DNA of 64,000 nt from Ancylobacter sp. WKF20 (GTDB lineage Bacteria > Pseudomonadota > Alphaproteobacteria > Rhizobiales > Xanthobacteraceae): the NCBI RefSeq assembly GCF_029760895.1, contig NZ_CP121679.1, forward strand, positions 3,392,001-3,456,000, read 5' to 3'. Below, one piece after another: positions 6,348 to 61,533 of this stretch; position 1 is the stretch's first letter; each line of letters begins with the position of its first letter. The position numbers were made by a program, and so were the translations under genes. The notes beneath the pieces were generated by a model. The model did no database searches and had not been told where the DNA came from. It saw only the letters and a list, made by a program, of their open reading frames with translations.

Positions 6348-7504
6348 GCGCAGCCCCCCATCGCGCCGGCCATACTGCCCCGGCGCTCATAGGTGGAGAG
6401 CGCCGAGCATGCGCCGCATTTGGCGCAGCCGGCCTTGGCGTCGATGGATTTCAGCCCGGTCGCCAGCAGCATGCCCGAGAGCGGGCCGAGGATGGAATTC
6501 ATGAAGGCCGGCGTGGGCGTCGGGTGGCTTTCCAGCGGCGTGCCGGAAATCGGCACGAAGGGCACGACGAAGGGATAGACGCCGATCTTGGTCAGCCGGT
6601 CGCAGATGGCGAGGATCTCCTCGCGCGTGTCGCCGAGCCCGGCGAGGATATAGGTCGAGACCTGCCCGCGCCCGAACACCGGCACGGCGGCGGCGAACGC
6701 CTCAAAGTAGCGTTCCACCGACACCTGCGCCTTGCCGGGCATGATCGTCTGCCGCACCGGCTCGCTCACCGCTTCCAGATGCATGCCGAGCGCGTCCGCC
6801 CCCGCCGCGAACATCCGGCCGAACCAGGCATCGTCATCGGGCGGCTCGCACTGCACCTGGATCGGCAGGTCCACCGCCGCCTTCACCGCCGCGACGCTCT
6901 CGGTGAGGATCGCCGCGCCACGGTCCTTGCCCGGCGGGGTGCCGGTGGTCATCACCATGTGCTTGACGCCATCAAGCTCCACCGCCGCCTTGGCGACTTC
7001 CGCGAGCTGGGCGGGGGTCTTGCGCTCGATGGTGCGGCCGGCCGCCAGCGACTGGCCGATGGCGCAGAACTGGCAGGTCTTGGTGCGGCTCTGATAGCGG
7101 ATGCAGCTTTGCAGCACCGTGGTCGCCAGCACGTCGCGCCCATGCAGCACGGCGATCTTGGAATAGGGAATGCCATCGGCGGTGGAGAGGCCGTAGAATT
7201 TCGGCTGAAGCGGGAACGACACCTCGCCCAGCACCAGCCCGTCGCGGCTGATGCGCGAGCGACCATAGGCGTCGGGCCGCTCCACCAGATAGGGGCTCTC
7301 GAAGGCCGGCGCGGTGTGGACGGGGACCATGACGGTCATGCCGTCAATGGTCATCGCCTTATGGTCGGACGGTCCAGCACCACCCCGGCGCGACTCGGCG
7401 CCGGCACGGGGATCAACCAGCCGCACCCCGTAGGACTGCAACTCGTTGATCAGGTGCTCCGTCGGCATCGGCTGGAGATCGGTCGCGGGATCCATCGGCT
7501 TCAT
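6344..7504 (-). CDS. MSMEG_0568-family radical SAM protein (Nit1C cluster)
   Basis: A 386-residue radical SAM enzyme. The three cluster-binding cysteines are at about 134, 144 and 147 ([14 protein letters not shown]). The spacing is CX9CX2C instead of canonical CX3CX2C, and is characteristic of the MSMEG_0568/biotin-synthase-like branch. A second cysteine group, GCAKCGACS, lies close to the C-terminus and may hold an auxiliary iron-sulfur cluster. I choose the ATG at 7504 because GGGAG sits 8 bases upstream. This overlaps the nitrilase 3' end by 92 bp; starts at 7495 and 7468 are also possible. The reaction is not known for any member I can name. Confidence 0.85.
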
Positions 7505-47694: not shown

Positions 47695-48033
47695 GTGGCG
47701 GACACCGATCCCATAAGCCTGCCGGTCGGGCGTGATGTGCGCGTGACCTTCGACCGGCGCGAGCTCGACCGCATTCTCGACCTCTATGGCCGCATGGTCG
47801 CCATTGGCGAATGGCGCGACTACGCCATCGACTTCGGCCGCGACCGGGCGGTGTTCTCCATTTTCCGCCGGGCCGCCGAGGTGCCGATCTACCGCATCGA
47901 GAAAGACCCGCGCCTTGCCCGCAAGCAGGGCGCCTACACAGTGGTGTCGCAGACCGGCCTCATCCTCAAGCGCGGGCACGAGCTTGCGCGCGTGCTGCAG
48001 GTGTTGGAAAAACCCCTGCGCGTGGTCAACTGA
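47695..48033 (+). CDS. DUF2794 domain protein
   Basis: A 112-residue protein, almost entirely the alphaproteobacterial DUF2794 domain (VTFDRRELDRILDLYGRMVAIGEWRDYAIDF...IYRIEKDPRLARKQGAYTVVS pattern). The function is unknown. I choose the GTG at 47695 because GGGAGG lies 6 bases before it; an ATG at 47647 would add 16 residues but has a poorer ribosome-binding site. It precedes aguB by 37 bp in the same direction and may be cotranscribed with it. Confidence 0.85.
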   Translation: MADTDPISLPVGRDVRVTFDRRELDRILDLYGRMVAIGEWRDYAIDFGRDRAVFSIFRRAAEVPIYRIEKDPRLARKQGAYTVVSQTGLILKRGHELARVLQVLEKPLRVVN

Positions 48034-48070
48034 CCTACGCCCGCCCCGCGTCGCTCCCCCGGAGAAAAGA

Positions 48071-48961
48071 ATGCGCAGCCTGACCGTCGCCGCCACCCAG
48101 ATGCGTTGCAGCTGGGAGATCGAGGCCAATATCGCCCGCGCCGAGGCGTTGGTGCGTGAGGCCGCCGGACGCGGGGCGACGCTGATCTTGCTCCAGGAGC
48201 TGTTCGAGACCCCCTATTTCTGCCAGGACCAGCTGCACGAATTCCTCGCCCTCGCCCAGCCGCTGGAGGGCAACCGGCTCATCGGCCATTTCCAGAAGCT
48301 GGCCAAGGAGCTCGGCGTCGTGCTGCCGGTGAGCTTCTTCGAGCGCGCCGGCCAGGCGCTGTTCAACTCCATCGCCATCGTCGATGCCGATGGCGCGGTG
48401 CTCGGCGTCTACCGCAAGAGCCACATCCCGGACGGGCCGGGCTACACCGAGAAGTTCTATTTCTCGCCGGGCGATACCGGCTTCAAGGTGTGGGACACGG
48501 CGGCCGGGCGCATCGGCGTCGGCATCTGCTGGGACCAGTGGTTCCCGGAGTGCGCCCGCTCCATGGCGCTGCTCGGCGCCGAGGTGCTGCTCTATCCCAC
48601 CGCCATCGGCTCCGAGCCGCAGGACCCGAACCTTGATTCGGCCGCGCACTGGCAGCGGGTGATGCAGGGCCATGCCGGGGCGAACCTCATGCCGCTCATC
48701 GCCTCCAACCGCGTCGGCACCGAGCCCGGCCGGAACGGCACCGAGATCACCTTCTACGGCTCCTCCTTCATCGCCGATCCGACCGGGGCCAAGGTGGCGG
48801 AGGCCGGGCGGACAGAAGAGGGCGTCATCACCGCCACCTTCGATCTCGACGCCATCGCCCAGCAGCGCCGCAGTTGGGGCGTGTTCCGCGACCGCCGGCC
48901 GGAGCTCTATGCACCGGTGCTGACGCTGGACGGGCGCACCACCGCGCGCGGGGCGGCCTGA
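48071..48961 (+). CDS. aguB: N-carbamoylputrescine amidase
   Basis: A 296-residue nitrilase-superfamily amidase. The triad is Glu43 (LLQELFETPYF), a Lys in YRKSHIPDGPGY and Cys153 (GICWDQWFPE). Text such as FYFSPGDTGFKVWDT is diagnostic of AguB. It hydrolyses N-carbamoylputrescine to putrescine, CO2 and ammonia. It lies 3 bp before aguA, which makes its substrate, so the two complete the agmatine route to putrescine. Confidence 0.96.
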   Translation: MRSLTVAATQMRCSWEIEANIARAEALVREAAGRGATLILLQELFETPYFCQDQLHEFLALAQPLEGNRLIGHFQKLAKELGVVLPVSFFERAGQALFNSIAIVDADGAVLGVYRKSHIPDGPGYTEKFYFSPGDTGFKVWDTAAGRIGVGICWDQWFPECARSMALLGAEVLLYPTAIGSEPQDPNLDSAAHWQRVMQGHAGANLMPLIASNRVGTEPGRNGTEITFYGSSFIADPTGAKVAEAGRTEEGVITATFDLDAIAQQRRSWGVFRDRRPELYAPVLTLDGRTTARGAA

Positions 48962-48964
48962 GCC

Positions 48965-50056
48965 ATGGCCGAGATCCTCACCAGCCTGCCCGCCGCCGAC
49001 GGCTTCCGCATGCCCGCCGAATGGGAACCCCATGCCGGCACCTGGATGATCTGGCCCGAGCGGCCGGACAATTGGCGCCAGGGTGCCGCGCCGGCGCAGG
49101 ACGCCTTCGTCGCGGTCGCCAGCGCCATTGCCCGCTTCGAGCCGGTGACCATGCTGACCTCCGCCGGGCAATGGGCCCGCGCCCGCGCCGCGCTCCCGGC
49201 CAATGTGCGGGTGGTCGAGGCCTCCTCGGACGATTCCTGGTGCCGCGATTCCGGCGCCACTTTCGTCACCGACGCCGCCGGGCGCGTGCGCGCGGTGAAC
49301 TGGCGGTTCAATGCCTGGGGCGGCCTCTATGCGCCCTGCGACCAGGACGAGCTCATCGCCGCCAAGATGGCGGAGATCGAGGGCACGCCGCGCTATGACG
49401 CGCCGCTGGTGCTGGAAGGCGGCTCGATCCATGTCGATGGCGAAGGCACGGTGCTCACCACCGAGGAATGCCTGCTCAACCCGAACCGCAACCCCTCGCT
49501 GACCCGTGAGGAGATCGAGCGCCATCTGCGCGACTATCTCGGCGCCTCCAAGGTCATCTGGCTCGGCGCCGGCCTCGTCGATGACGAGACCTCCGGCCAT
49601 ATCGACAACCTCGCCTGCTTCGTGCGGCCGGGCGTGGTCGCGCTGACCTGGTGCGACGACCCGGCGGACCCGCAGCACGCCATCTCGGTCGATGCCTATG
49701 AGCGCCTCTCCGGACGGACGGATGCGTGCGGGCGCGGCATCGAGATCGTCAAGCTGCCGCTGCCCGGCCCGCTCTACCGCGCGCCGGACGAGGCGATCGA
49801 GGACGCCGCGGCCGACAATGCCTATCAGCGCTACGCGCAGGAACGGCTCGGCGCCTCCTACGCCAATTTCTATCTCGGCAATGGCTTCGTGCTGATGCCG
49901 CTGCTCGACCCGCGCACGGATGAGAAAGCCCGCGCCATCCTCGCCGGCCTGTTCCCGGAGCGCGAGGTGATCGGCCTGCCGACGCGCGAGATCGTGCTCG
50001 GCGGCGGCAATATCCACTGCATCACCCAGCAGCAGCCGGCCGGCAAAGCGGGCTAG
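48965..50056 (+). CDS. aguA: Agmatine deiminase
   Basis: A 363-residue guanidino-group hydrolase of the peptidyl-arginine-deiminase family. FRMPAEWEPHAGTWMIWPERPDNWR at the N-terminus and GGGNIHCITQQQP at the C-terminus (nucleophile Cys about 352) are the AguA hallmarks; the GGS..VDGEG and GHIDN blocks supply the Glu, Asp and His. It converts agmatine to N-carbamoylputrescine and ammonia. It is the second gene of the aguB-aguA pair. Confidence 0.96.
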   Translation: MAEILTSLPAADGFRMPAEWEPHAGTWMIWPERPDNWRQGAAPAQDAFVAVASAIARFEPVTMLTSAGQWARARAALPANVRVVEASSDDSWCRDSGATFVTDAAGRVRAVNWRFNAWGGLYAPCDQDELIAAKMAEIEGTPRYDAPLVLEGGSIHVDGEGTVLTTEECLLNPNRNPSLTREEIERHLRDYLGASKVIWLGAGLVDDETSGHIDNLACFVRPGVVALTWCDDPADPQHAISVDAYERLSGRTDACGRGIEIVKLPLPGPLYRAPDEAIEDAAADNAYQRYAQERLGASYANFYLGNGFVLMPLLDPRTDEKARAILAGLFPEREVIGLPTREIVLGGGNIHCITQQQPAGKAG

Positions 50057-51264: not shown

Positions 51265-51960
51265 TCAGAGCGTGCCGAGAATGGCGTTGGCGAGGCGGGC
51301 CACCGTCGCCACATGGGCGCGGCTCGCCGCATAGGCGGCCTCGCCGTCGCGGCGAAGAAGCGCCGCGTGCAGCGCCCGCATCTCGGCGATGGCGTCGGCA
51401 TGGCGGCCTTCCGCCGCGATGGTCATGGAGCGCAGATGGTTGATGCGCGCATTGAGCGAGCGCACCACATCCCACGCCACTTCCTTGCCGGCGGCGACGA
51501 ATAGCTTCTCGTAGAATTCGGTCGTGCGGCGCAGCACCTCGCGCGGGCTGCCGGTCTGGAAGGCGGTGTCGATCTCGTCGATCACCGCGCCGAGCGCGGC
51601 GATGTCGGCCTCGCTCGCGGTGAGGGCGCAGGCCCGCGCCGCCTCGCTCTCCAGCAAGCCACGGATTTCATAGATCTGCGCCGCCTGCTTCGGGTCGGGC
51701 CGCGTCACCGCCGGGCCCTGATGGGGAATGGTCTCGACCAGCCCCTCGGCCTCCAGATGGCGCAGCACCTCGCGCACCACGCTGCGGCTCACCCCCAGCC
51801 GCTCGCACAGCGTGCGCTCGACCAGCCGCTCGCCGGGCTTGAAGCGGAAGTCGAGAATGGCGTCGCGCATCTTTTCCAGCGTCAGGCTGCGCAGCGTGGT
51901 GACGCTGCGCTCGACCTTCATTTCCTCGCCCGCGCCGTTCGCGTCCACGATGCCCGCCAT
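51265..51960 (-). CDS. GntR-family regulator, FCD domain, probable local repressor
   Basis: A 231-residue FadR-subfamily GntR protein. The winged helix (LEKMRDAILDFRFKPGERLVERTLCERLGVSRSVVREVLRHLEAEGLV) is followed by an FCD domain at about 90-225. It is divergent from the PF06684 gene at 52108 across 147 bp. A perfect palindrome in that space, overlapping the predicted -10, points to this protein repressing the oxygenase/transporter locus. The effector is probably the imported substrate or a pathway intermediate. GGAGA lies just before its ATG. Confidence 0.9.
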   Translation of the reverse strand: MAGIVDANGAGEEMKVERSVTTLRSLTLEKMRDAILDFRFKPGERLVERTLCERLGVSRSVVREVLRHLEAEGLVETIPHQGPAVTRPDPKQAAQIYEIRGLLESEAARACALTASEADIAALGAVIDEIDTAFQTGSPREVLRRTTEFYEKLFVAAGKEVAWDVVRSLNARINHLRSMTIAAEGRHADAIAEMRALHAALLRRDGEAAYAASRAHVATVARLANAILGTL

Positions 51961-52011
51961 GGATGTCTCCGTTCCCACACCTCTTGTCGCCCGAGTGGCG
52001 CGGGATGACAA

Positions 52012-52039
52012 TTGACTCGATGATCTTATGGTATACCAT
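52012..52039 (+). promoter_or_regulatory. Promoter with GntR/FCD operator of the oxygenase-transporter locus
   Basis: TTGACT (52012-52017) and TACCAT (52034-52039), spaced 16 bp, form a plausible sigma-70 promoter reading toward 52108. The perfect 12-bp palindrome ATGGTATACCAT (52028-52039) covers the -10. The core GGTATACC with AT flanks is a typical FCD-type GntR site. Occupancy should block RNA polymerase. Confidence 0.7.
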
Positions 52040-52107
52040 CATATGAAACGCAAGGCGCCGGCCCGCTCCGAGGCGCCGGCCGACCCCGCTTCTGACTGGG
52101 AACACCG

Positions 52108-52713
52108 ATGCCGCTGCAGCTTCGCAAGGTCGTCACCTACACTGAGACCACGTTGATCGAGGGCGGCCGCGCGGCCCCGACGCCGCTGCGCCTGTTCGCG
52201 GCGGCGGCCGTGCTGACCAACCCGTGGGCCGGGCGCGGCTTCGTCGAGGATCTCCGCCCGGAGATTCACGACGTCGCCCCCCAGCTCGGCGCGCTGCTGA
52301 CCGAGGAAGTGCTGAAGCTCACCGGCGGCGGCGAGGTGGTCGAGGGCTATGGCAAGGCGGCGATCGTCGGCACGTCGGGCGAGGTCGAGCACGCCTCGGC
52401 GCTCATCCACACGCTGCGTTTCGGCAATCACTACCGCAAGGCGGTCGGCGCCAAGAGCTATCTCGCCTTCACCAATACGCGCGGCGGACCGAACACGCCG
52501 GTGGTCATCCCGCTGATGGACAAGCTGGATGAGGGCCGCCGCTCGCATTACCTCACCATCCAGTTCTCCATTCTCGACGCCCCGGCGCCGGACGAGATCG
52601 TCGTCGCACTCGGCGCCTCGATTGGCGGGCGCCCGCATCACCGCATCGGCAACCGTTATCTCGATCTGGAAGAGCTCGGCTCCACGCAGGGTGTGGAAGT
52701 GCGAAATGGCTGA
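52108..52713 (+). CDS. PF06684 (DUF1185, 'amino acid synthesis') family protein
   Basis: A 201-residue protein of the PF06684 family, opening LRKVVTYTETTLIEGGRAAPTPLRLFAAAAVLTNPWAGR and carrying GGEVVEGYGKAAIVGTSGEVEHASALIH. Known structures of this family show a variant of the Bacillus chorismate mutase fold, related to the RidA/YjgF fold; its biochemical role is not settled despite the name. Here it is the first gene of an oxidative locus and overlaps the next gene by 8 bp. By analogy with RutC, it could process an unstable ring-opened or enamine product. That is inference. Confidence 0.85.
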   Translation: MPLQLRKVVTYTETTLIEGGRAAPTPLRLFAAAAVLTNPWAGRGFVEDLRPEIHDVAPQLGALLTEEVLKLTGGGEVVEGYGKAAIVGTSGEVEHASALIHTLRFGNHYRKAVGAKSYLAFTNTRGGPNTPVVIPLMDKLDEGRRSHYLTIQFSILDAPAPDEIVVALGASIGGRPHHRIGNRYLDLEELGSTQGVEVRNG

Positions 52714-54496
52714 GGTGCGCACCCTCGCCTATGCCGGCCGGGACGGGCGCCCGTCGCAGGTGCATTTCCGCCGCGAGGGCGTGGCCGGCGCCCTGCCCAT
52801 CGTGCTGATCCATGGCGTCGGGCTGTCGCTCGCCGCCTGGGGTCCGCAGATCAAGGCGCTCGCCGCCCGTTATGACGTGATCGCCCTCGACATGCCCGGC
52901 CATGGCGGCTCCTCGCTGCCGCCGGAGGATGCGCGGCTCTCCGATTACGCTGCCCATGTCGTCGCCCTGCTCGACGCGCTCGCCCTTCCCGCCGCCGTGG
53001 TGATCGGCCATTCCATGGGCGCGCTGGTGGCGCTGGAGACCGCGCTCGCCTACCCGTCCCGCGTGCTCGGCGTCGCCGCGCTCAACGCCGTGTTCTGCCG
53101 CAGCGAGGAACAGCGCGCCGCCGTGCTCGCCCGCGCGGAAAGCCTCAGCGACGGCGACACCGGCGCCTCGCATGAGGCGGCGGTCGCCCGCTGGTTCGGC
53201 ACGCCGGTGCCGGTGGAGCTGGAAGCCTCGGCGCATCTCGTCTCCGCCCTGCTCGCCGGCTGCGATCCGGTTGGCTATGCCCGCACCTATGGGCTGTTCG
53301 CCGCCTCCGACGCCGCCCATCGCGAGCGCCTCGCCGGGCTCGCTTTGCCCGCTCTGTTCATGACCGCCGAGGGCGACCCGAACTCGACGCCGGACATGTC
53401 CCGCGCCATGGCCCGCCTCGCCCCGCAGGGCCGCGCCGAGGTGCTGCCCGGCGCCCGGCACATGATGAACCTCACCCACCCCGACACGGTGAATGCCCGG
53501 CTCCTCGCCTTCATCGACGAGGTGGAACGCGCCCGCGCCGCCGTGCCGGCCTTCGACGTGAAGGCGTTCCGGCAGGCGCTCGGCAGCTTCCTCACCGGCG
53601 TCACCGTGGTGACCACGCGCAACGCGTCCGGGGAGATGCGCGGCTTCACCGCCAATTCCTTCTCCTCCGTCTCGCTCGACCCGCCGCTGATCCTCGTCTG
53701 CATCGCCAGGACCGCGTCGAGCTACCCGGTGTTTTCCGCCGCCGACAATTTCGCCGTCTCCATCCTCGGCGCGGCGCAGAAGGATGTGTCGGCGCTGTTC
53801 GCCTCGAAGTCGCCCGACAAATTCGCCGGCGCCGACTGGCATCTCGGCCCGGCCGGCAGCCCGGTGATCTCCGGCGCGGCGGCGTGGTTCGACTGCACCC
53901 GCCACGAGGTGGTGGAAGCCGGCGACCATGTGATCCTGATCGGCCGCGTCGAGGGCTTCGGCAGCACCGACGCGCCCCCGCTCGGCTATTGCCGCGGCGC
54001 TTATGTCGATTTCGCGCTTGGGCAACAGGCGCTCGCCAAGCGCGACGAGCCGGCCCGCGTCGGCGCCCTGCTCGAATCGGGCGACGCGCTCCTGCTCGTC
54101 GAGGATGCGCAGGGGCGCCTCACGCTGCCCACCGGTACCTGCCTCGAGCCGGCGTCGAACCCGAAAAGCCTGCGCGGCGCGCTGGCCAAGCTCGGCGTCG
54201 AGGGGCACCTCTCCTTCCTCTTCGCGGTGTTCGAGACCCCGGCCGCGACGGCGGACGCCCCGCCCACCGTGTCGATCTATTATCGCGGCGCCCTTGCCGG
54301 CGCTCCCCACACCGAGACCGGCGCGCGGCTGGTGCCGCTCACCGCTATCGACTTCGCCCGCCTGCCGGACGAGGCGACCCGTGCCATGGTGGCGCGCTAT
54401 GTGCGCGAGCGGCGCGAGGACGCGTTCGGCATTTATGTCGGCGACGCCGAGCACGGCCGCATCCATCCGCTCGCCCGCTCTCTCGACCACGCCTGA
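52706..54496 (+). CDS. Alpha/beta hydrolase - flavin reductase fusion with a C-terminal domain
   Basis: A 596-residue three-part protein. Residues 1-275 are an alpha/beta hydrolase with triad Ser103 (GHSMG), Asp224 (EGDPN) and His252 (GARHMMN). Residues about 284-440 are a short-chain flavin reductase (FRQALGSFLTGVTVVTTR, NSFSSVSLDPPLILVCI), an FMN/FAD reductase that would feed the neighbouring LLM monooxygenase. Residues 455-596 look like a degenerate Nudix-type domain (DALLLVEDAQGRLTLPTG), with no intact Nudix box. RutD and RutF of the pyrimidine pathway are separate proteins of the first two kinds. The fusion makes a shared pathway very likely. Confidence 0.85.
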   Translation: MAEVRTLAYAGRDGRPSQVHFRREGVAGALPIVLIHGVGLSLAAWGPQIKALAARYDVIALDMPGHGGSSLPPEDARLSDYAAHVVALLDALALPAAVVIGHSMGALVALETALAYPSRVLGVAALNAVFCRSEEQRAAVLARAESLSDGDTGASHEAAVARWFGTPVPVELEASAHLVSALLAGCDPVGYARTYGLFAASDAAHRERLAGLALPALFMTAEGDPNSTPDMSRAMARLAPQGRAEVLPGARHMMNLTHPDTVNARLLAFIDEVERARAAVPAFDVKAFRQALGSFLTGVTVVTTRNASGEMRGFTANSFSSVSLDPPLILVCIARTASSYPVFSAADNFAVSILGAAQKDVSALFASKSPDKFAGADWHLGPAGSPVISGAAAWFDCTRHEVVEAGDHVILIGRVEGFGSTDAPPLGYCRGAYVDFALGQQALAKRDEPARVGALLESGDALLLVEDAQGRLTLPTGTCLEPASNPKSLRGALAKLGVEGHLSFLFAVFETPAATADAPPTVSIYYRGALAGAPHTETGARLVPLTAIDFARLPDEATRAMVARYVRERREDAFGIYVGDAEHGRIHPLARSLDHA

Positions 54497-54517
54497 ACCA
54501 GCACCGGGATCCCCGCC

Positions 54518-55576
54518 ATGAAGTTCTCCCTCTTCGTCCATATGGAGCGCCTCGATCCCGCCATCCCGCACCGCCAGCTCTTCGACGAGCTGGAGGAGCT
54601 GGCGCTGATCGCCGAGGCCGCCGGCTTCGAGACGGTGTGGATCGGCGAGCACCACGCGATGGAATTCACCATCGCGCCGAACCCGTTCATCCAGCTCGCC
54701 CATCTCGCGGCCAAGACCTCCACCATCCGCCTCGGCACCGGCAATGTGATCGCGCCGTTCTGGCACCCGGTGCGGCTCGCCGGCGAGGCGGCGATGATGG
54801 ATGTCGCCTGCGAGGGCCGGCTCGATCTCGGCGTGGCGCGCGGCGCCTATATGTTCGAATATGAGCGCCTGCTGCCCGGCCTCGACGCCATGGGCGCGGG
54901 CCTGCGCATGCGCGAACTGGTGCCGGCGGTGCAGAAGCTCTGGGAAGGCGACTACGCCCATGAGGGCCAGTTCTGGAGCTTCCCCACCTCCACCGCCTCG
55001 CCGAAGCCCGTGCAGGCCGGCGGCCCGCCGGTGTGGATCGCTGCGCGCGACCCGAACAGCCATGATTTCGCGGTGGCCAATGGCTGCAATGTGCAGGTGA
55101 CGCCGCTCGCCTCCGGCGATGGCGAGGTGGCGAGCCTGATGGAGCGCTTCTCCACGGCGGTCGGCAACCACCCCGAAGTGCCGCGCCCGAAGATCATGCT
55201 GCTGCAGCATGCTTTTGTGGCCGACAGCGAGGCGGAAGCCGAGCAACTCGCCGACGATCTCTCTGCCTGGTACGGCCTGTTCGGCGCCTGGTTCGCCAAT
55301 AAGCGCCCGATCCATCAGGCGATCATGGCCCCGCTCACCCCGGAGGAGCGCGCCGCCTACCCGCAATACGCCCCCGATGTGGTGCGCAAGAACCTCGTCA
55401 TCGGCCAGGCCGACGAGGTGATCAGCCGGCTGAAAGGCTATGAGGCGCTGGGATTCGACCAGTTCTCCATCTGGATCGACGCCGGCATCAGCCATGCGCG
55501 CAAGAAGAAGTCGCTGGACCTGTTCATCCGCGAGGTGATGCCCGCCTTCGCGCCAGCCGCCTCCGTGGCGGCGTGA
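54518..55576 (+). CDS. LLM-class flavin-dependent monooxygenase
   Basis: A 352-residue bacterial-luciferase-like TIM-barrel protein. It opens MKFSLFVHMERLDP and shows GFETVWIGEHHAMEF (the strand-3 His pair of the family), RLGTGNVIAPFWHPVRLAGEAAMMD and GRLDLGVARGAY. Such enzymes use reduced FMN supplied by a separate reductase, here the fusion protein next door, to oxygenate aldehydes, amines or N-heterocycles (RutA is one member). It is the probable first catabolic step of the locus. It begins 21 bp after the fusion gene. The substrate is unknown. Confidence 0.9.
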   Translation: MKFSLFVHMERLDPAIPHRQLFDELEELALIAEAAGFETVWIGEHHAMEFTIAPNPFIQLAHLAAKTSTIRLGTGNVIAPFWHPVRLAGEAAMMDVACEGRLDLGVARGAYMFEYERLLPGLDAMGAGLRMRELVPAVQKLWEGDYAHEGQFWSFPTSTASPKPVQAGGPPVWIAARDPNSHDFAVANGCNVQVTPLASGDGEVASLMERFSTAVGNHPEVPRPKIMLLQHAFVADSEAEAEQLADDLSAWYGLFGAWFANKRPIHQAIMAPLTPEERAAYPQYAPDVVRKNLVIGQADEVISRLKGYEALGFDQFSIWIDAGISHARKKKSLDLFIREVMPAFAPAASVAA

Positions 55577-55586
55577 GGAAGCCCCG

Positions 55587-57068
55587 ATGACCGCCCTGCG
55601 CGACGACTTCCGGCTCTATATCGACGGCGCCTTCGTGCCGGGCGGGGCGAGTTTCGAGAGCCTTGACCCGGCGACCGGCCAGCCCTGGGCGGTGATGCCA
55701 GCGGCCACGGCTGAGGACGTGAACCGCGCCGTCGCGGCCGCCCACCGCGCGTTCGACGCGCCGGCATGGGCGAACCTCACCGCCACCCAGCGCGGCAAGC
55801 TGCTATTCAAGCTCGGCGATCTCGTCGCCGCCCATGCGCAGGAGCTGGCGGAGCTTGAGACCCGCGACACCGGCAAGATCATCCGCGAGACGCGGGCGCA
55901 GATCGGCTATGTCGCGGAGTATTACCGCTATTTCGGCGGACTCGCCGACAAGGTGGAAGGCGCGCATCTGCCCGTCGACAAGCCGGACATGGAAGCCTGG
56001 CTGCGCCGCGAGCCGATCGGCGTCGTCGCCGCCGTGGTGCCGTGGAACTCGCAGCTTTTCCTGTCCGCGGTGAAGCTCGGCCCGGCGCTGGCGGCGGGCT
56101 GCACGGTCGTGCTGAAAGCGTCCGAGGAAGGTCCCGCGCCACTGCTCGCCTTCGCCCGGCTGGTGCATGAGGCGGGCTTCCCGCCCGGCGTCGTCAACAT
56201 CCTCACCGGCTTCGGCGAGGAATGCGGGCGAACGCTCACCGCCCATAAGCTCGTCTCCCGCGTCGCCTTCACCGGCGGGCCCTCCACCGCGCGCCATGTG
56301 GTGCGCAACACGGCGGAGAACCTCGCCTATACGACGCTGGAGCTCGGCGGCAAGTCGCCGGTGCTGGTCTTCGCCGATGCCGATCTGGACAGCGCGGCCA
56401 ATGCCATCGTCGCCGGCATCTTCGCCGCCTCCGGCCAGAGCTGCGTCGCCGGCTCGCGCCTCTTCGTCGAGCAGAGCGTGCGCGACAAGCTCATCGCCAT
56501 CCTCACCGAGAAAGCCCGCCGCATCCGCATCGGCGATCCGCAGGATCCGGCAACCGAGATGGGCCCGCTCGCCACCGCCCGCCAGCTCGCCCATATCGAG
56601 GAGGTCGTCGCCGCGAGCCTTGAAGCCGGCGCCACGCTCGTCACCGGTGGCACCCGTGCGGACGGGTTCTTAGCCGGCAATTATTACGCGCCGACCATCC
56701 TCGCCTGCGCCGGCAATGAAGTGCCCTGCGCGGCGCAGGAGCTGTTCGGCCCGGTGCTCAGCGTCATCGGCTTCACCGATGAGGCGGACGCCATCGCCAA
56801 AGCCAATGACAGCCCGTTCGGCCTCGCCTCCGGTGTCTTCACCCGCGATCTCACCCGCGCCCACCGGCTGATCCGCAAGCTGCGGGCCGGCATCGTCTGG
56901 GTGAACACCTACCGCGCCGTCTCCCCCATCGTGCCCTTTGGCGGCTATGGCCAGTCGGGCCTCGGGCGCGAGGGCGGGGCGGAATCGATCCGCGACTACA
57001 CCCGCACCAAGTCGGTCTGGCTGCGCACCTCCGACGCGCCGATCGACGATCCCTTCGTCATGCGTTGA
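55587..57068 (+). CDS. NAD(P)-dependent aldehyde dehydrogenase
   Basis: A 493-residue aldehyde dehydrogenase. TLELGGKSPVLVF contains the general-base glutamate and FAASGQSCVAGSRLFVE the nucleophilic cysteine; VVPWNSQLFLSAVKLGPALAAGC is the cofactor-binding stretch. It oxidises an aldehyde to the acid, presumably one released by the LLM enzyme and hydrolase. It begins 10 bp after the LLM gene. It resembles betaine/semialdehyde-type dehydrogenases, but the substrate is not readable. Confidence 0.93.
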   Translation: MTALRDDFRLYIDGAFVPGGASFESLDPATGQPWAVMPAATAEDVNRAVAAAHRAFDAPAWANLTATQRGKLLFKLGDLVAAHAQELAELETRDTGKIIRETRAQIGYVAEYYRYFGGLADKVEGAHLPVDKPDMEAWLRREPIGVVAAVVPWNSQLFLSAVKLGPALAAGCTVVLKASEEGPAPLLAFARLVHEAGFPPGVVNILTGFGEECGRTLTAHKLVSRVAFTGGPSTARHVVRNTAENLAYTTLELGGKSPVLVFADADLDSAANAIVAGIFAASGQSCVAGSRLFVEQSVRDKLIAILTEKARRIRIGDPQDPATEMGPLATARQLAHIEEVVAASLEAGATLVTGGTRADGFLAGNYYAPTILACAGNEVPCAAQELFGPVLSVIGFTDEADAIAKANDSPFGLASGVFTRDLTRAHRLIRKLRAGIVWVNTYRAVSPIVPFGGYGQSGLGREGGAESIRDYTRTKSVWLRTSDAPIDDPFVMR

Positions 57069-57075
57069 GGCTCCC

Positions 57076-57405
57076 ATGCTCTATGAGATGCGCACCTACC
57101 GGCTGAAGACGGGCGCGGTGCCGGCCTATGTGAAGCTGGTCGCGGACGAAGGCATCGCCCTGCAGAAAAGCTATCTCGGCAACCTCGTCGGCTATTTCAC
57201 CAGCGAGATCGGCCCGCTCAACGAGATCGTCCATATCTGGGCCTATGAGAGCCTCGATGACCGCGCGGCCCGCCGCGCGCGGCTGAACGCCGATCCCGCC
57301 TGGCAGGTCTTCCTGCCGAAGATCCAGGCGCTGATCGAGACCATGGAGAACAAGATTCTCCTGCCGACGTCCTTTTCGCCCACAGCCTTCTCGCCGCTCG
57401 ACTGA
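57076..57405 (+). CDS. NIPSNAP-family protein
   Basis: A 109-residue ferredoxin-like-fold protein of the NIPSNAP family. It opens MLYEMRTYRLKTGAVPAYVKL and has GYFTSEIGPLNEIVHIWAYESLDDRAARRA, the conserved HIW segment. Bacterial NIPSNAPs often sit in catabolic operons beside oxygenases, perhaps as small enzymes or binding proteins; the role is not established. It lies 7 bp after the dehydrogenase, so it is cotranscribed. Confidence 0.88.
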   Translation: MLYEMRTYRLKTGAVPAYVKLVADEGIALQKSYLGNLVGYFTSEIGPLNEIVHIWAYESLDDRAARRARLNADPAWQVFLPKIQALIETMENKILLPTSFSPTAFSPLD

Positions 57406-57456
57406 GCCGCGCTGCCCTCACGGCGCCGGGCCGAGGCCCGTCGCCCCATTGACCAA

Positions 57457-57490
57457 GACCCGAACCAACGACCCGAACCAACGACCCGAG
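57457..57490. repeat. 13-bp tandem repeat upstream of the ABC transporter
   Basis: GACCCGAACCAAC occurs twice in tandem (57457-57469, 57470-57482), followed by a partial third copy (GACCCGAG). It lies 47-80 bp before the binding-protein start, in the only sizeable gap (131 bp) between the enzyme and transporter genes. It could be a regulator site or a slippage product. Confidence 0.7.
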
Positions 57491-57536
57491 CGCGCCAAGC
57501 GCCGCCTTCCACATGTCGAAACCCAAGGGGAATATG

Positions 57537-58565
57537 ATGTCACGCCACTCCCGCGCCGGCTGGATCGCCGGCCTCGCCCTCACGGCCGGCCTTGCCGGCG
57601 CCGCGCTCGCCCAGTCCGGCTCCATCGTCTTCACCAGCTGGGGCGGCACCACGCAGGACGCCCAGAAGAAGAGCTGGGCCGTGCCCTTCACCAAGGAAAC
57701 CGGCATCACCGTCAAGCAGGACGGCCCGACCGATTACGGCAAGCTGAAAGCCATGGTCGAGAGCGGCAATGTCTCCTGGGACGTGGTCGACGTGGAGGCC
57801 GATTTCGCCGCCGCCGCCGCCAAGGACGGGCTGATCGAGCCGATCGACTTCGCCATCGTCAAGCGGGCCGATCTCGACCCGCGCTTCGTCACCGACCATG
57901 CGGTGGGCAGCTTCTATTATTCCTTCGTGCTCGGCTTCAATCCGGCGAGCCTCGGCGGCAAGGCGCCGAAGGGCTGGGCCGACGTGTTCGACACCAAGGC
58001 CTTCCCCGGCAAGCGCACCTTCTACAAATGGGCCGCGCCCGGCGTGCTGGAAATCGCCCTGCTGGCCGACGGCGTGCCGGCCGACAAGCTCTACCCGCTC
58101 GATCTCGACCGCGCCTTCAAGAAGCTCGACAGCATCAAGAAGGACATCGTCTGGTGGGGCACCGGCGCGCAATCGCAGCAGCTTCTCGCCTCGGGCGAGG
58201 CGCCGATCGGCCAGTTCTGGAACGGGCGCATCTTCGCGCTCCAGCAGAGCGGTGAGAAGGTCGGCCTGTCCTGGGAGCAGAACCTGACCGCCGCCGACAT
58301 GCTGGTGGTGCCGAAGGGGTCGAAGAACAAGGAAGCGGCGATGAAGTTCATCGCCGAGGCGACCAGCCCCGAGGGGCAGGCGAGCTTCGCCACGGAGAGC
58401 GGCTATGCCCCGGTCAATGTGAAGTCCGCCGCGCTGATGCCGAAGGACGTCGCCGCCAACCTGCCCGACAAGCACACCGGCTCGCAGATCAATCTCGACA
58501 TGGGCTACTGGGCCGCCCATCGCGACGAGATCGGCAAGCGCTGGTACGCGTGGCAGGCCCAGTGA
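57537..58565 (+). CDS. PotD-like ABC transporter substrate-binding protein
   Basis: A 342-residue periplasmic binding protein of the spermidine/putrescine (PotD/PotF) cluster. A signal peptide (SRAGWIAGLALTAGLAGAALAQ) is followed by GSIVFTSWGGTTQDAQKKSW, the usual N-terminal strand and ligand loop. AAPGVLEIALLADGV and VPKGSKNKEAAMKFI lie farther on. The ligand is probably a small cationic or polar nitrogen compound. AGGGG ends 6 bases before the ATG at 57537; an in-frame ATG at 57534 or 57513 is possible. Its place in the locus suggests it captures the substrate of the oxygenase. Confidence 0.9.
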   Translation: MSRHSRAGWIAGLALTAGLAGAALAQSGSIVFTSWGGTTQDAQKKSWAVPFTKETGITVKQDGPTDYGKLKAMVESGNVSWDVVDVEADFAAAAAKDGLIEPIDFAIVKRADLDPRFVTDHAVGSFYYSFVLGFNPASLGGKAPKGWADVFDTKAFPGKRTFYKWAAPGVLEIALLADGVPADKLYPLDLDRAFKKLDSIKKDIVWWGTGAQSQQLLASGEAPIGQFWNGRIFALQQSGEKVGLSWEQNLTAADMLVVPKGSKNKEAAMKFIAEATSPEGQASFATESGYAPVNVKSAALMPKDVAANLPDKHTGSQINLDMGYWAAHRDEIGKRWYAWQAQ

Positions 58566-58654
58566 TCCGGCAGGCGCAGTGATCTGGCAGGCGCCGGAAG
58601 CGGCGCCCCGAGGAACGTGAACGGAGACCGGCCCCGCCCAAGGCGGAGCCGGTC
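58560..58654 (+). other. Tandem 17-mer and hairpin between binding protein and permease genes
   Basis: A 17-bp unit spanning the binding-protein stop codon (58560-58576) is repeated immediately with one change (58577-58593). Downstream, GACCGGC (58626-58632) pairs with GCCGGTC (58648-58654) and an inner CCGCC/GGCGG stem extends it, giving a strong hairpin without a U tract. Such hairpins after binding-protein genes typically stabilise the upstream mRNA and reduce permease expression. Confidence 0.6.
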
Positions 58655-58777
58655 CTCGTGCCCGGAACGATCCTGTCGCGACTGGTCACCCACGCCACAC
58701 GCATTGGCCACATCGGCCTGATCGTCCACCTGACTGCACTCATCGAACCGCCTTTGAGCGAGCCTGATCGAGCCCTG

Positions 58778-59656
58778 ATGACCGTGACCGACCTGACGGC
58801 GACCGAACGGCCTCATACTACCTCCAGCGCGCCCCGCCGGCGCGGCCGGGGGCTCGCGCCCGTGCTGCCTGCGCTGGTTCTGGTTTCCTTCGTCTTCGTC
58901 ATTCCCGTGCTGGCGCTGCTGCTGCGCAGCGTGCTGGAGCCGGAGCCGGGCCTGCAGAACTACGCCGCCTTCTTCGCCTCCACGACCTATCTGAAGGTGC
59001 TCGGCAACACCTTCCTGGTCGCCGGCACGGTCACCGTTGTGACGGTTCTGCTAGGTTTTCCCGTGGCTTGGTTCCTGGCCATCGCGCCGAGCGTCTGGTC
59101 GCGGCTCCTCTTCGCCATCGTCATCCTGTCGATGTGGACCAATCTTCTGGCCCGCACCTATGCCTGGATGGTGCTGCTGCAGCGCACCGGCATCATCAAC
59201 CGCACGCTGATGAATCTCGGCCTCATTTCCGAGCCGCTGCCGCTGATCAACAACCTCGTCGGCGTCACCATCGGCATGACCTATATCATGTTACCTTTCA
59301 TGATCCTGCCGCTGCACGCCACCATCAAGGCCATGGACCCCGCCATCTTCCAGGCCGCTGCCCTGTGCGGCGCGAGCCGCTGGCAGGCCTTCACCCGCGT
59401 GATGCTGCCGCTCACCGGCTCGGGCATCGCCGCCGGCGCTCTGATGGTGTTCGTCATGTCGCTTGGGTATTTTATTACCCCCGCGCTGCTTGGCGGCACC
59501 GCCAACATGATGCTGGCGGAGTTGATCGCCCAGCTTGTGCAGTCCCTGCTCGACTGGGGGCTGGCGGGCGCGGCGGCGCTGGTGCTGCTCGTCATCACGC
59601 TGGCCATCTATATGATCCAGCTTCGCTTTTTCGGCTTCGGCGAGACGAGGAGCTAG
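58778..59656 (+). CDS. ABC transporter permease, PotB-like
   Basis: A 292-residue inner-membrane permease with about six hydrophobic segments (first at 30-50). The EAA loop reads AALCGASRWQAFTRVMLPLTGSGI, which contacts the ATPase. It pairs with the permease that follows. ATG at 58778 is taken because the preceding frame has no membrane or family character; the first 25 residues are a cytosolic Thr/Arg-rich tail. Confidence 0.92.
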   Translation: MTVTDLTATERPHTTSSAPRRRGRGLAPVLPALVLVSFVFVIPVLALLLRSVLEPEPGLQNYAAFFASTTYLKVLGNTFLVAGTVTVVTVLLGFPVAWFLAIAPSVWSRLLFAIVILSMWTNLLARTYAWMVLLQRTGIINRTLMNLGLISEPLPLINNLVGVTIGMTYIMLPFMILPLHATIKAMDPAIFQAAALCGASRWQAFTRVMLPLTGSGIAAGALMVFVMSLGYFITPALLGGTANMMLAELIAQLVQSLLDWGLAGAAALVLLVITLAIYMIQLRFFGFGETRS

Positions 59657-59662
59657 GCCGCC

Positions 59663-60463
59663 ATGCTGCTCGATTTCGCCCGTCTCGGCGCCTGGCGCGT
59701 CGCCCTCATCCTGATTGCGGGGCTGGTCGGCGCCTATCTGCTGCTGCCGATCCTGCTCATAGTCGCGCTGTCCTTCGGCTCCTCGCAATGGCTGCAATTC
59801 CCCCCGCCGGGCTGGACGCTGCGCTGGTATGAGGCGCTGTTCGACGATCCCGACTGGCTCGCCTCCTTCCTCACCAGCTTCCAGATCGCCGCCGTGGTGA
59901 CGGTGCTCTCGGTGCTGATCGGCCTTATGGCCTCCTTCGGCCTCACCCGCGGTACCTTCCGCGGCCGCGCGGCGCTGCGCGCGCTGTTCCTCACGCCGAT
60001 GATCCTGCCCGTGGTGGTGCTGGCGGTAGCATTATACGCCTTCTTCCTGCGCCTGCACCTCAACGGCACGTTTCTGGGCTTCGTCCTCGCCCATCTGGTC
60101 ATCGCCCTGCCCTTCTCCATCATCGCGATTTCCAATGCGCTGGAACGGTTTGACCGCGATATCGAGACCGCCGCCATCGTCTGCGGCGCGAGCCCGCTGG
60201 AGGCCAAGATCCGCGTGACGCTGCCCGGCATCCGCCTCGGCCTCATCAGCGCGGCGATCTTCTCCTTCCTCGCCTCCTGGGACGAGGTGGTGATCGCCAT
60301 CTTCATGGCGAGCCCGGATTTGCAGACCCTGCCGGTGCGCATTTTCGGCACGCTGCGCCAGGATCTCTCCCCGGTCATCGCCGCTGTGTCGACGCTGCTG
60401 ATCGCGCTCACCGCCGGCCTCATGGCGCTTGCCGCCTTTTTCCGCAAGGACGCCCGCTCATGA
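59663..60463 (+). CDS. ABC transporter permease, PotC-like
   Basis: A 266-residue second permease, about six membrane segments, with EAA loop AAIVCGASPLEAKIRVTLPGIRLGL. GAGGAG lies before the ATG. It begins 6 bp after the first permease and overlaps the ATPase gene by 4 bp. With its partner it forms the heterodimeric channel of a PotABCD-type importer. Confidence 0.92.
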   Translation: MLLDFARLGAWRVALILIAGLVGAYLLLPILLIVALSFGSSQWLQFPPPGWTLRWYEALFDDPDWLASFLTSFQIAAVVTVLSVLIGLMASFGLTRGTFRGRAALRALFLTPMILPVVVLAVALYAFFLRLHLNGTFLGFVLAHLVIALPFSIIAISNALERFDRDIETAAIVCGASPLEAKIRVTLPGIRLGLISAAIFSFLASWDEVVIAIFMASPDLQTLPVRIFGTLRQDLSPVIAAVSTLLIALTAGLMALAAFFRKDARS

Positions 60464-61533
60464 CCTTTCTGGAAATCGCTCATATTTCCAAGACGTTCGG
60501 CAACGTCACCGCCGTCGATGACGTCTCGCTGGAGATCGCGCGCGGCGAGTTCGTCACCTTTCTCGGGCCGTCCGGCTCGGGCAAGAGCACGACGCTCTAC
60601 ATGATCGCCGGCTTCTTCGAGCCGACGCGCGGCGATGTGCGGCTGGAGGGGCGCAGCATCCTCACTGAACCCTCGAACAAGCGGAACATCGGCATGGTGT
60701 TCCAGCGCTACACGCTGTTCCCGCACCTCACCGTGGCCGAGAACGTCGCCTTTCCCTTGCGCGTGCGGCGCCGGCCGGCGGCGGAAATCGCCCGCAAGGT
60801 CGAGGAGATGCTGGCTCTGGTACGGCTGGAAAACTTCGCCGGGCGCCTGCCCGCGCAGATGTCCGGCGGCCAGCAGCAGCGCGTCGCGCTCGCCCGCGCG
60901 CTCGCCTATGACCCGCCGCTGCTCTTGATGGACGAGCCGCTCTCCGCGCTGGACAAGAAGCTGCGCGAGGAGATCCAGGGCGAGATCCGCCGCATCCACC
61001 GCGAGACCGGTGTCACCATACTCTACGTGACGCACGATCAGGAGGAGGCGCTCAGCCTTTCCGACCGCATCGCCTTGTTCAACCATGGCCGCATCGAGCA
61101 GATCGGCAAGGGCCGCGAGCTCTATGAGCGGCCGGAAAGCCGCTTCGTGGCTGGATTTGTCGGCCATTCCAACTTTCTGGAAGGCAAGCTCGCCGCCCGC
61201 GACGGCACGCGGGCGGAGATCGTCTTCCCCGATGGCAGCCGCATCGCCGGCCAGCCGCTGCACGGCACGCCGGCGCCCGGCCATGATGCGGCGCTGATGA
61301 TCCGGCCGGACCGGCTACGCTTCGCCGAGGCCGGCGCGCCGGGCATCGACGGCGTGCTGGCGGACGCAACCTTCATCGGCGAGACGTTCCACTTCACGGT
61401 GGCGACCGGCTGGGGCGCAAGCGTCAATCTGCGCCTGCCGGCCGCCAGCGCGGCGCTGCCGCAGACGCCGGAAATCGGCGCGAGGGTGCGCCTCGCCTGG
61501 GACGCAACGGATGCGCGCCTGTTCGTCAATTGA
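60460..61533 (+). CDS. ABC transporter ATP-binding protein, PotA-like
   Basis: A 357-residue ABC ATPase. Walker A GPSGSGKSTT, signature MSGGQQQRVALARAL, Walker B LLLMDEPLSALD and the switch His in YVTHDQEEALSLSD are all intact. Residues about 240-357 are a TOBE domain, usual for the polyamine/iron/opine group. It energises uptake by the two preceding permeases. It is the last gene of the locus. Confidence 0.95.
   Translation: MTFLEIAHISKTFGNVTAVDDVSLEIARGEFVTFLGPSGSGKSTTLYMIAGFFEPTRGDVRLEGRSILTEPSNKRNIGMVFQRYTLFPHLTVAENVAFPLRVRRRPAAEIARKVEEMLALVRLENFAGRLPAQMSGGQQQRVALARALAYDPPLLLMDEPLSALDKKLREEIQGEIRRIHRETGVTILYVTHDQEEALSLSDRIALFNHGRIEQIGKGRELYERPESRFVAGFVGHSNFLEGKLAARDGTRAEIVFPDGSRIAGQPLHGTPAPGHDAALMIRPDRLRFAEAGAPGIDGVLADATFIGETFHFTVATGWGASVNLRLPAASAALPQTPEIGARVRLAWDATDARLFVN

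What the first reader, a model, noticed from the sequence alone, without database searches (positions are those of the whole stretch)
51265..61533. Possible undescribed Rut-like oxidative pathway with its own importer and repressor
One locus holds a GntR/FCD regulator, a PF06684 protein (chorismate-mutase/RidA-like fold), an alpha/beta hydrolase-flavin reductase fusion, an LLM-class monooxygenase, an aldehyde dehydrogenase, a NIPSNAP protein and a PotABCD-type importer. The enzyme set parallels RutA (LLM), RutC (RidA fold), RutD (hydrolase) and RutF (flavin reductase) of uracil degradation. It lacks a visible RutB-type amidohydrolase or a RutG-type permease, and adds a dehydrogenase. The PotD-like importer suggests an amine or N-heterocycle as substrate. 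I infer oxygenative ring opening or N-oxidation, rearrangement or hydrolysis, then aldehyde oxidation.
Basis: partly seen in the sequence, partly recalled or inferred. Interest (0 to 1): 0.85.

Follow-up and report, generated by a model that had tools for sequence, protein, structure and literature searches.

The report
Trigonelline-degradation operon with GABA-type importer
This gene cluster is very probably a known pathway that lets bacteria eat trigonelline, a plant alkaloid found in coffee and legumes; the surprise is that its importer belongs to a family of bacterial proteins known as GABA receptors, which suggests that those proteins may naturally serve trigonelline.

Summary
The genes are as described. 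The pathway is neither undescribed nor Rut: gene by gene it matches the trigonelline (N-methylnicotinate) operon tgn, with TgnC and TgnA fused. The LLM is 58-60% identical to, and in a supported clade with, LLMs of two Acinetobacter loci of the same gene order. A palindromic operator occurs once in this genome; sites of its kind precede tgnF in 73 of 88 loci examined.

New here: the importer's binding protein belongs to the Atu4243/Pf622 family, known as GABA binders (Pf622 is the iGABASnFR parent), with all eight GABA contacts kept. The family tracks TgnB: present in 15 of 15 genomes of the window's order with this protein, and in 137 of 140 Pseudomonas genomes with it against 0 of 109 without. 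Where unlinked, the importer still carries a similar site. In a genome inferred to be Agrobacterium fabrum, Atu4243 lies in a tgn cluster whose GntR gene is, by gene count, Atu4232, its repressor with unknown inducer. Prediction: these proteins import trigonelline. Ligand preference is untested.

The parts
51265..52011 (-). GntR/FCD repressor (TgnR-like); start codon uncertain
   Evidence: Pfam GntR + FCD; 42% identical to the regulators of the two Acinetobacter clusters, 48% to the GntR upstream of the Agrobacterium-like cluster
52028..52039 (.). operator candidate ATGGTATACCAT
   Evidence: only WTGGTATACCAW site in the genome; a site of this kind within 260 bp upstream of tgnF in 73 of 88 loci
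52108..52713 (+). TgnF-like PF06684 protein (auxiliary of the aldehyde dehydrogenase by analogy)
   Evidence: PF06684 E 3e-68; 65-66% to the Acinetobacter gene; TgnF role as reported in a PMC7913881 passage
52706..53530 (+). TgnC half of the fusion: alpha/beta hydrolase; S103, D224 and H252 invariant (catalytic triad by position, inferred)
   Evidence: invariant columns among 25 sequences of A1; 39-40% to the separate Acinetobacter hydrolase
53531..54496 (+). TgnA half of the fusion: flavin reductase plus a C-terminal region without a Pfam family
   Evidence: PF01613; 3rh7 (SMa0793, S. meliloti) covers residues 280-593; 36% to the separate Acinetobacter reductase
54518..55576 (+). TgnB-like LLM oxygenase
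   Evidence: PF00296; clade with the Acinetobacter LLMs; 6 of 120 listed homologues named trigonelline monooxygenase
55587..57068 (+). TgnE-like aldehyde dehydrogenase
   Evidence: PF00171; 66% to the Acinetobacter gene next to TgnB
57076..57405 (+). NIPSNAP protein, role unknown; start uncertain
   Evidence: PF07978; found in 25 of 40 profiled loci and in neither Acinetobacter locus
57513..58565 (+). solute-binding protein of the Atu4243/Pf622 family; start uncertain
   Evidence: phmmer 4eq7 E 2.7e-147, 6dgv 2.3e-134; all eight GABA contact residues kept
58778..59656 (+). PotB-type permease; start inferred
59663..60463 (+). PotC-type permease
60460..61533 (+). PotA-type ATPase with TOBE domain

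Best explanation
The locus is a TgnR-regulated trigonelline catabolic operon. The PotABCD-type importer takes up trigonelline (inferred). The TgnA half of the fusion makes reduced flavin, with which TgnB opens the pyridinium ring; TgnE oxidises the product, the TgnC half hydrolyses the N-methylformamido intermediate to methylamine, formate, CO2 and succinic semialdehyde (steps recalled from the Acinetobacter work), and TgnE/TgnF or a separate succinate-semialdehyde dehydrogenase elsewhere in the genome finishes it. Shown here: gene content, order, clade, operator and genome-level linkage. Inferred: substrate and each reaction. The binding protein belongs to a family described as selective GABA binders; the best reading is that this family's physiological role lies in trigonelline uptake, and that GABA, a similar small zwitterion, binds the same site. 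The confidence given is for the tgn assignment; for trigonelline as the importer's main ligand it is about 0.6.
For: Two Acinetobacter loci (L239, L240) have GntR(-) | TgnF TgnC TgnA TgnB TgnE in the same order, and the LLMs share a supported clade (96/94). Source databases name 6 of 120 listed LLM homologues trigonelline monooxygenase and 7 of 120 listed fusion homologues (E)-2-((N-methylformamido)methylene)succinate hydrolase. One operator in the genome, its kind conserved across alpha-, beta- and gammaproteobacteria. SBP family: in 297 genomes of the window's order 14 of 15 copies at 59% identity or more lie 2.5-3.0 kb from a TgnB of at least 59% identity; in 249 Pseudomonas genomes SBP and TgnB co-occur in 137 of 140 against 0 of 109; 28 of 29 Pseudomonas SBP copies have the site within 400 bp upstream of the mature protein, among them 11 of 11 importer loci in whose fetched stretch no tgn enzyme gene was found. 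S. meliloti 1021 pSymA carries the cluster about 12 kb from nifHDK; [quoted passage not shown] A succinate-semialdehyde dehydrogenase above its cut-off lies elsewhere in the genome.
Against: No biochemistry on this organism. The A. baylyi ADP1 sequences themselves were not compared. TgnC and TgnA are only 36-40% identical to the Acinetobacter ones. Most named homologues carry other, generic names (SsuD-like oxygenase; NADH-FMN oxidoreductase RutF). Atu4243 is reported as highly specific for GABA (review passage), and its contact residues are said to be conserved or highly similar in PA0222, a GABA-specific protein, so trigonelline binding is a prediction against published binding data. Six genomes of the order have TgnB without this SBP, Ancylobacter crimeensis L009 and several Rhodobacteraceae loci show none in the stretch held, and three Pseudomonas genomes have the SBP without a TgnB match. 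Co-occurrence counts are not corrected for kinship.
Confidence: 0.85

Rival explanations
1. The enzymes degrade trigonelline, but the importer is a true GABA importer placed in the same regulon because both GABA and trigonelline end at succinic semialdehyde.
For: Atu4243 reported as highly specific for GABA; all eight GABA contacts conserved; a related SBP, PA0222, binds GABA at 290 nM with similar contacts.
Against: None of the window's ten genes is a GABA aminotransferase; tight genome-level tie to TgnB and to the tgn-type operator even where unlinked; derepression of atu4243 was unexplained.
Confidence: 0.25
2. The pathway is tgn-like but its substrate is another N-methylated pyridinium or heteroaromatic betaine.
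For: LLM 58-60% identical to the Acinetobacter ones, enough for a change of substrate; a sister LLM clade at about 40% identity exists with similar gene sets.
Against: Complete tgn gene set and order, and an operator shared with Acinetobacter; the sister class lacks the operator (0 of 11 loci outside the clade).
Confidence: 0.1
3. An undescribed Rut-like pathway for a pyrimidine or similar ring.
For: Same fold classes (LLM, flavin reductase, hydrolase, BCM-like fold); many homologues of the fusion bear the generic source name RutF.
Against: Scores far below RutD and RutF cut-offs, no RutA match shown; PF06684 is not RidA; no RutB or RutG type gene among the ten genes of the locus.
Confidence: 0.02

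Closest known systems
Trigonelline degradation cluster tgn of Acinetobacter (Perchat 2018, recalled; not held in the library)
   Same: GntR divergent from TgnF, TgnC, TgnA, TgnB, TgnE in that order; exact same operator (two Acinetobacter loci)
   Different: TgnC and TgnA fused; NIPSNAP added; PotABCD importer in place of an NCS1-type permease and a 389-aa protein read as a porin; succinate-semialdehyde dehydrogenase not in the cluster
Atu4243/Pf622 GABA-binding proteins (4eq7, 4euo, 6dgv, 9d57)
   Same: About 70% identity over the aligned part and all eight contact residues
   Different: Described as GABA receptors or sensors; in the genomes scanned here they go with TgnB (15 of 15 and 137 of 140)
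Rut pyrimidine degradation
   Same: Fold classes of the parts
   Different: Not members: below family cut-offs, no RutA match shown, no RutB/RutG type gene in the locus
S. meliloti trigonelline catabolism genes on pSym
   Same: A full cluster on pSymA near nifHDK
   Different: TgnC and TgnA separate there; identity of the genetically mapped genes with this cluster is inferred

Membership tests
tgn trigonelline pathway | LLM oxygenase in the TgnB clade | tested here: met
   28-row clade with two Acinetobacter LLMs, 96/94; A. baylyi itself not compared
tgn trigonelline pathway | flavin reductase, hydrolase, aldehyde dehydrogenase and PF06684 partners in conserved order | tested here: met
   two of them fused
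tgn trigonelline pathway | GntR regulator and shared operator | tested here: met
tgn trigonelline pathway | succinate-semialdehyde dehydrogenase | tested here: met
   not in the cluster; one gene over the cut-off elsewhere in the genome
tgn trigonelline pathway | NCS1-type permease as transporter (Acinetobacter) | tested here: not met
   a PotABCD importer stands in its place; transporter taken as an exchangeable part, not as defining chemistry
tgn trigonelline pathway | oxidation of trigonelline | not testable with these tools
   needs enzyme assay
Atu4243/Pf622 binding proteins | eight ligand-contact residues | tested here: met
   29 of 29 loci at 57% identity or more, window included; 0 of 10 more distant ones
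Atu4243/Pf622 binding proteins | ligand GABA or trigonelline | not testable with these tools
   needs binding assay
Rut pathway | RutD and RutF family scores | tested here: not met
   76.7 of 238.5 and 101.7 of 254.75 bits
Rut pathway | RutA-type LLM | tested here: not met
   no RutA among the 25 of 30 families shown, the last at 27.9 bits, nor among the names of the 22 PDB matches
Rut pathway | RutB amidohydrolase and RutG permease | tested here: not met
   none among the ten genes of the locus; the rest of the genome was not searched for them

The most novel reading that the evidence does not exclude
The Atu4243/Pf622 family, known as selective bacterial GABA binders and the source of the iGABASnFR sensor, is by origin the trigonelline-uptake protein of tgn regulons; Atu4232, the repressor of atu4243, is TgnR, and its missing inducer is trigonelline or a pathway intermediate. 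Part of the 'GABA signalling' attributed to this protein in Agrobacterium would then reflect a plant-betaine catabolic system, and the GABA sensors may respond to trigonelline-like zwitterions.
Probability: 0.55. Interest if true: 0.8.

Novelty: new variant of a known kind. Interest (0 to 1): 0.62.

Why it matters
The pathway itself is known, so the locus adds a fused TgnC-TgnA and a different importer. What would matter is the importer: a well-studied protein family named for GABA goes, in genomes and by operator, with trigonelline degradation. That gives a direct test of an open question (what relieves repression of atu4243), a possible importer for the long-known trigonelline use by Sinorhizobium, and a cross-reactivity question for GABA sensors built from this family.

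Tried and rejected
Rut-like pathway: rejected on family scores and clade. Substrate from the importer alone (GABA): not adopted as the pathway substrate, because none of the ten genes is a GABA enzyme and the LLM set matches tgn. Homarine as substrate: considered for the sister LLM clade only; the literature searches gave no gene set to compare in the rows listed. Literature: 3 papers hold PF06684 or DUF1185; 6 hold Atu4243 and GABA; no held paper has both 'trigonelline' and 'Atu4243'; searches gave no link in the rows listed, which are only part of their hits; subscription papers are not covered, and Perchat 2018 and Planamente 2012 were not read. Passages only were seen of PMC2954203, PMC7913881, PMC6829864, PMC11113362, PMC8269262, PMC12999171, PMC3907764 and PMC12489286. 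The AlphaFold model of the fusion (pLDDT 81.6, pTM 0.55) and fold search confirmed the hydrolase fold and the 3rh7 match but not a relative placement of the halves (rmsd over 10 to 3rh7).

Selection and dropped rows: the 40 loci and the Pseudomonas stretches were chosen because they hold the SBP or TgnB, so only the whole-genome scans measure association. In one search, 7 of 22 places at 40-46% identity were left out of the SBP set. In one search, 139 genomes matched; two (G793, G868) with only a 44-45% LLM were left out of the TgnB set, both without the SBP. In one search one of the 15 loci without a site (L131) had only 89 bp of upstream sequence. A GntR gene was not found within the fetched stretch of 16 of the 40 loci, the Agrobacterium-like ones among them; for one of these it was found further upstream.
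Full report
What is there. The nine plus-strand genes are closely spaced, and a GntR/FCD gene is divergent. Between them lies the palindrome ATGGTATACCAT (52028-52039), the only WTGGTATACCAW in the 4.63-Mb genome. The best named relative of the LLM is from Ancylobacter radicis (92%), so the host is taken to be Ancylobacter-like.

What the pathway is. The turning point was a passage in PMC7913881: TgnF, a homologue of the PF06684 protein there, belongs to Acinetobacter baylyi ADP1 and stimulates TgnE-dependent succinic semialdehyde oxidation; the reference is the trigonelline pathway paper. A passage of PMC8269262 says the TgnA/TgnB oxygenase opens the ring. Of 120 listed homologues, 6 of the LLM carry the source name 'flavin-dependent trigonelline monooxygenase, oxygenase component' and 7 of the fusion '(E)-2-((N-methylformamido)methylene)succinate hydrolase'; most other names are generic. 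Of three named Acinetobacter genomes tried, two have a TgnB-like LLM, as do 17 of 129 genomes of that genus. Those two (15BJ CIP 110321 and A. vivianii) have GntR(-) | PF06684, hydrolase, flavin reductase, LLM, ALDH, then an NCS1-type permease, a 389-aa protein read as a porin without a Pfam hit, and a second ALDH, which in A. vivianii scores above the succinate-semialdehyde dehydrogenase cut-off. The window has the same order with hydrolase and reductase fused; identities are 58-60% (LLM), 66% (ALDH), 65-66% (PF06684), 39-40% (hydrolase), 36% (reductase), 42% (GntR). The LLM tree puts the window, Acinetobacter, Pseudomonas and rhizobia in one clade of 28 rows (96/94), with a sister clade of 9 (95/94). 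A succinate-semialdehyde dehydrogenase over its cut-off is elsewhere in the genome. The reaction details are recalled from Perchat 2018, which is not held.

Operator. Within 260 bp upstream of PF06684, a site of this kind was found in 73 of 88 loci, the window's own included; the exact ATGGTATACCAT is the commonest form (33 sites), among them both Acinetobacter loci and the Pseudomonas loci, then ATGGCATACCAT (20 sites), typical of the rhizobial loci. It is missing in four loci of the clade (L014, L023, L216, and L131 with only 89 bp upstream) and in 11 of 11 loci of the sister class or without a clade LLM.

The importer. The SBP matches Atu4243 (4eq7) at E 2.7e-147 and the iGABASnFR parent Pf622 at 2.3e-134. 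The GABA site of the Pf622-based sensor is W9, T13, F100, Y102 (F in Pf622), W202, R205, D228, Y264 (PMC12999171 passage); all are kept (F or Y at 102) in the window, Atu4243 and 29 of 29 loci at 57% identity or more, and in none of the 10 more distant ones. The Pseudomonas SBP of the 39% class differs at four of the eight. Against this reading, a passage of PMC6829864 reports GABA-specific binding by PA0222 with conserved or highly similar contacts. In 297 genomes of the window's order (taken as Hyphomicrobiales), 15 have the SBP at 59% or more; all 15 have TgnB, 14 of them 2.5-3.0 kb away; the fifteenth (G004) has only a 40% LLM near it and its TgnB on another contig; six further genomes have TgnB without the SBP. 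In 249 genomes of the genus of P. brenneri the SBP is in 140 and TgnB in 137, all 137 within the 140; the exceptions are G825 (contig end; TgnF, TgnC and TgnE lie beside the SBP), G829 and G961. Kinship is not corrected for. In the Pseudomonas stretches, 28 of 29 SBP copies have a core with at most one mismatch within 400 bp upstream of the mature protein, 27 of them the identical TTGGAATACCAT, against 116 of 1675 tiles of the same loci, those sites included, and 1 to 40 tiles for five altered cores. This holds for 11 of 11 importer loci with no tgn enzyme gene found in the fetched stretch. A ribBA gene, which would supply flavin, has such a site at about -44 in L262.

Agrobacterium. G590, inferred to be A. 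fabrum C58, has an SBP identical to 4eq7 over 312 residues inside TgnF-TgnC-TgnA-TgnB-TgnE-NIPSNAP-SBP-PotB-PotC-PotA, followed by a gene above the succinate-semialdehyde dehydrogenase cut-off. Of 39 genomes of that genus 16 have the SBP; 14 of the 16 loci were fetched, all 14 with TgnF, C, A, B, E and the importer genes. Upstream in G590 are a GntR gene 48% identical to the window's and four genes: the SBP is the eleventh gene after the GntR gene, as Atu4243 is after Atu4232, if no small gene was overlooked. PMC3907764 (passage) states that atu4243 is totally repressed by the Atu4232 protein and that derepression is unexplained. TGGCATACCA sites lie before the first gene after GntR and before tgnF. 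So Atu4232 is probably TgnR, and trigonelline or an intermediate its inducer. No held paper has both 'trigonelline' and 'Atu4243'.

Sinorhizobium. The cluster lies on pSymA of strain 1021 about 12 kb from nifHDK; [quoted passage not shown] PDB entry 3rh7 (SMa0793) matches the TgnA half; that it is the pSymA TgnA is inferred.

Limits. No biochemistry; A. baylyi ADP1 not compared; published data call Atu4243 highly specific for GABA. The pathway assignment is strong, the importer's ligand is a prediction.

Noticed in passing
L242 (A. fabrum pAt, NZ_CP079857); L026, L029, L035, L036, L043: A sister LLM clade (about 40% to the window) in similar gene sets (PF06684, ALDH, flavin reductase, hydrolase), on pAt beside a ProX betaine importer, without the tgn operator: possibly a pathway for another N-methylated heteroaromatic betaine.
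   Followed up: partly
L262:6973-8079 with site at 6929: A ribBA (riboflavin biosynthesis) gene in a Pseudomonas genome carries a tgn-type operator just upstream, as if flavin supply were induced together with the flavin oxygenase.
   Followed up: partly
window 47786-50056: N-carbamoylputrescine amidase and agmatine deiminase genes side by side, both above their family cut-offs: a putrescine route, no link to the tgn operon seen.
   Followed up: partly
L275 and other Pseudomonas loci: Some Pseudomonas genomes carry two SBP copies (e.g. about 88% and 67-68% to Pf622) close together; the second, next to TgnB in L275, lacks the operator within 400 bp.
   Followed up: no
L183:2881-4059: An iron-alcohol-dehydrogenase-like gene (below every named cut-off) and an amino-acid-type importer (named by eye) lie between the GntR gene and tgnF in the Agrobacterium-like genome, with an operator-like site before them.
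   Followed up: partly
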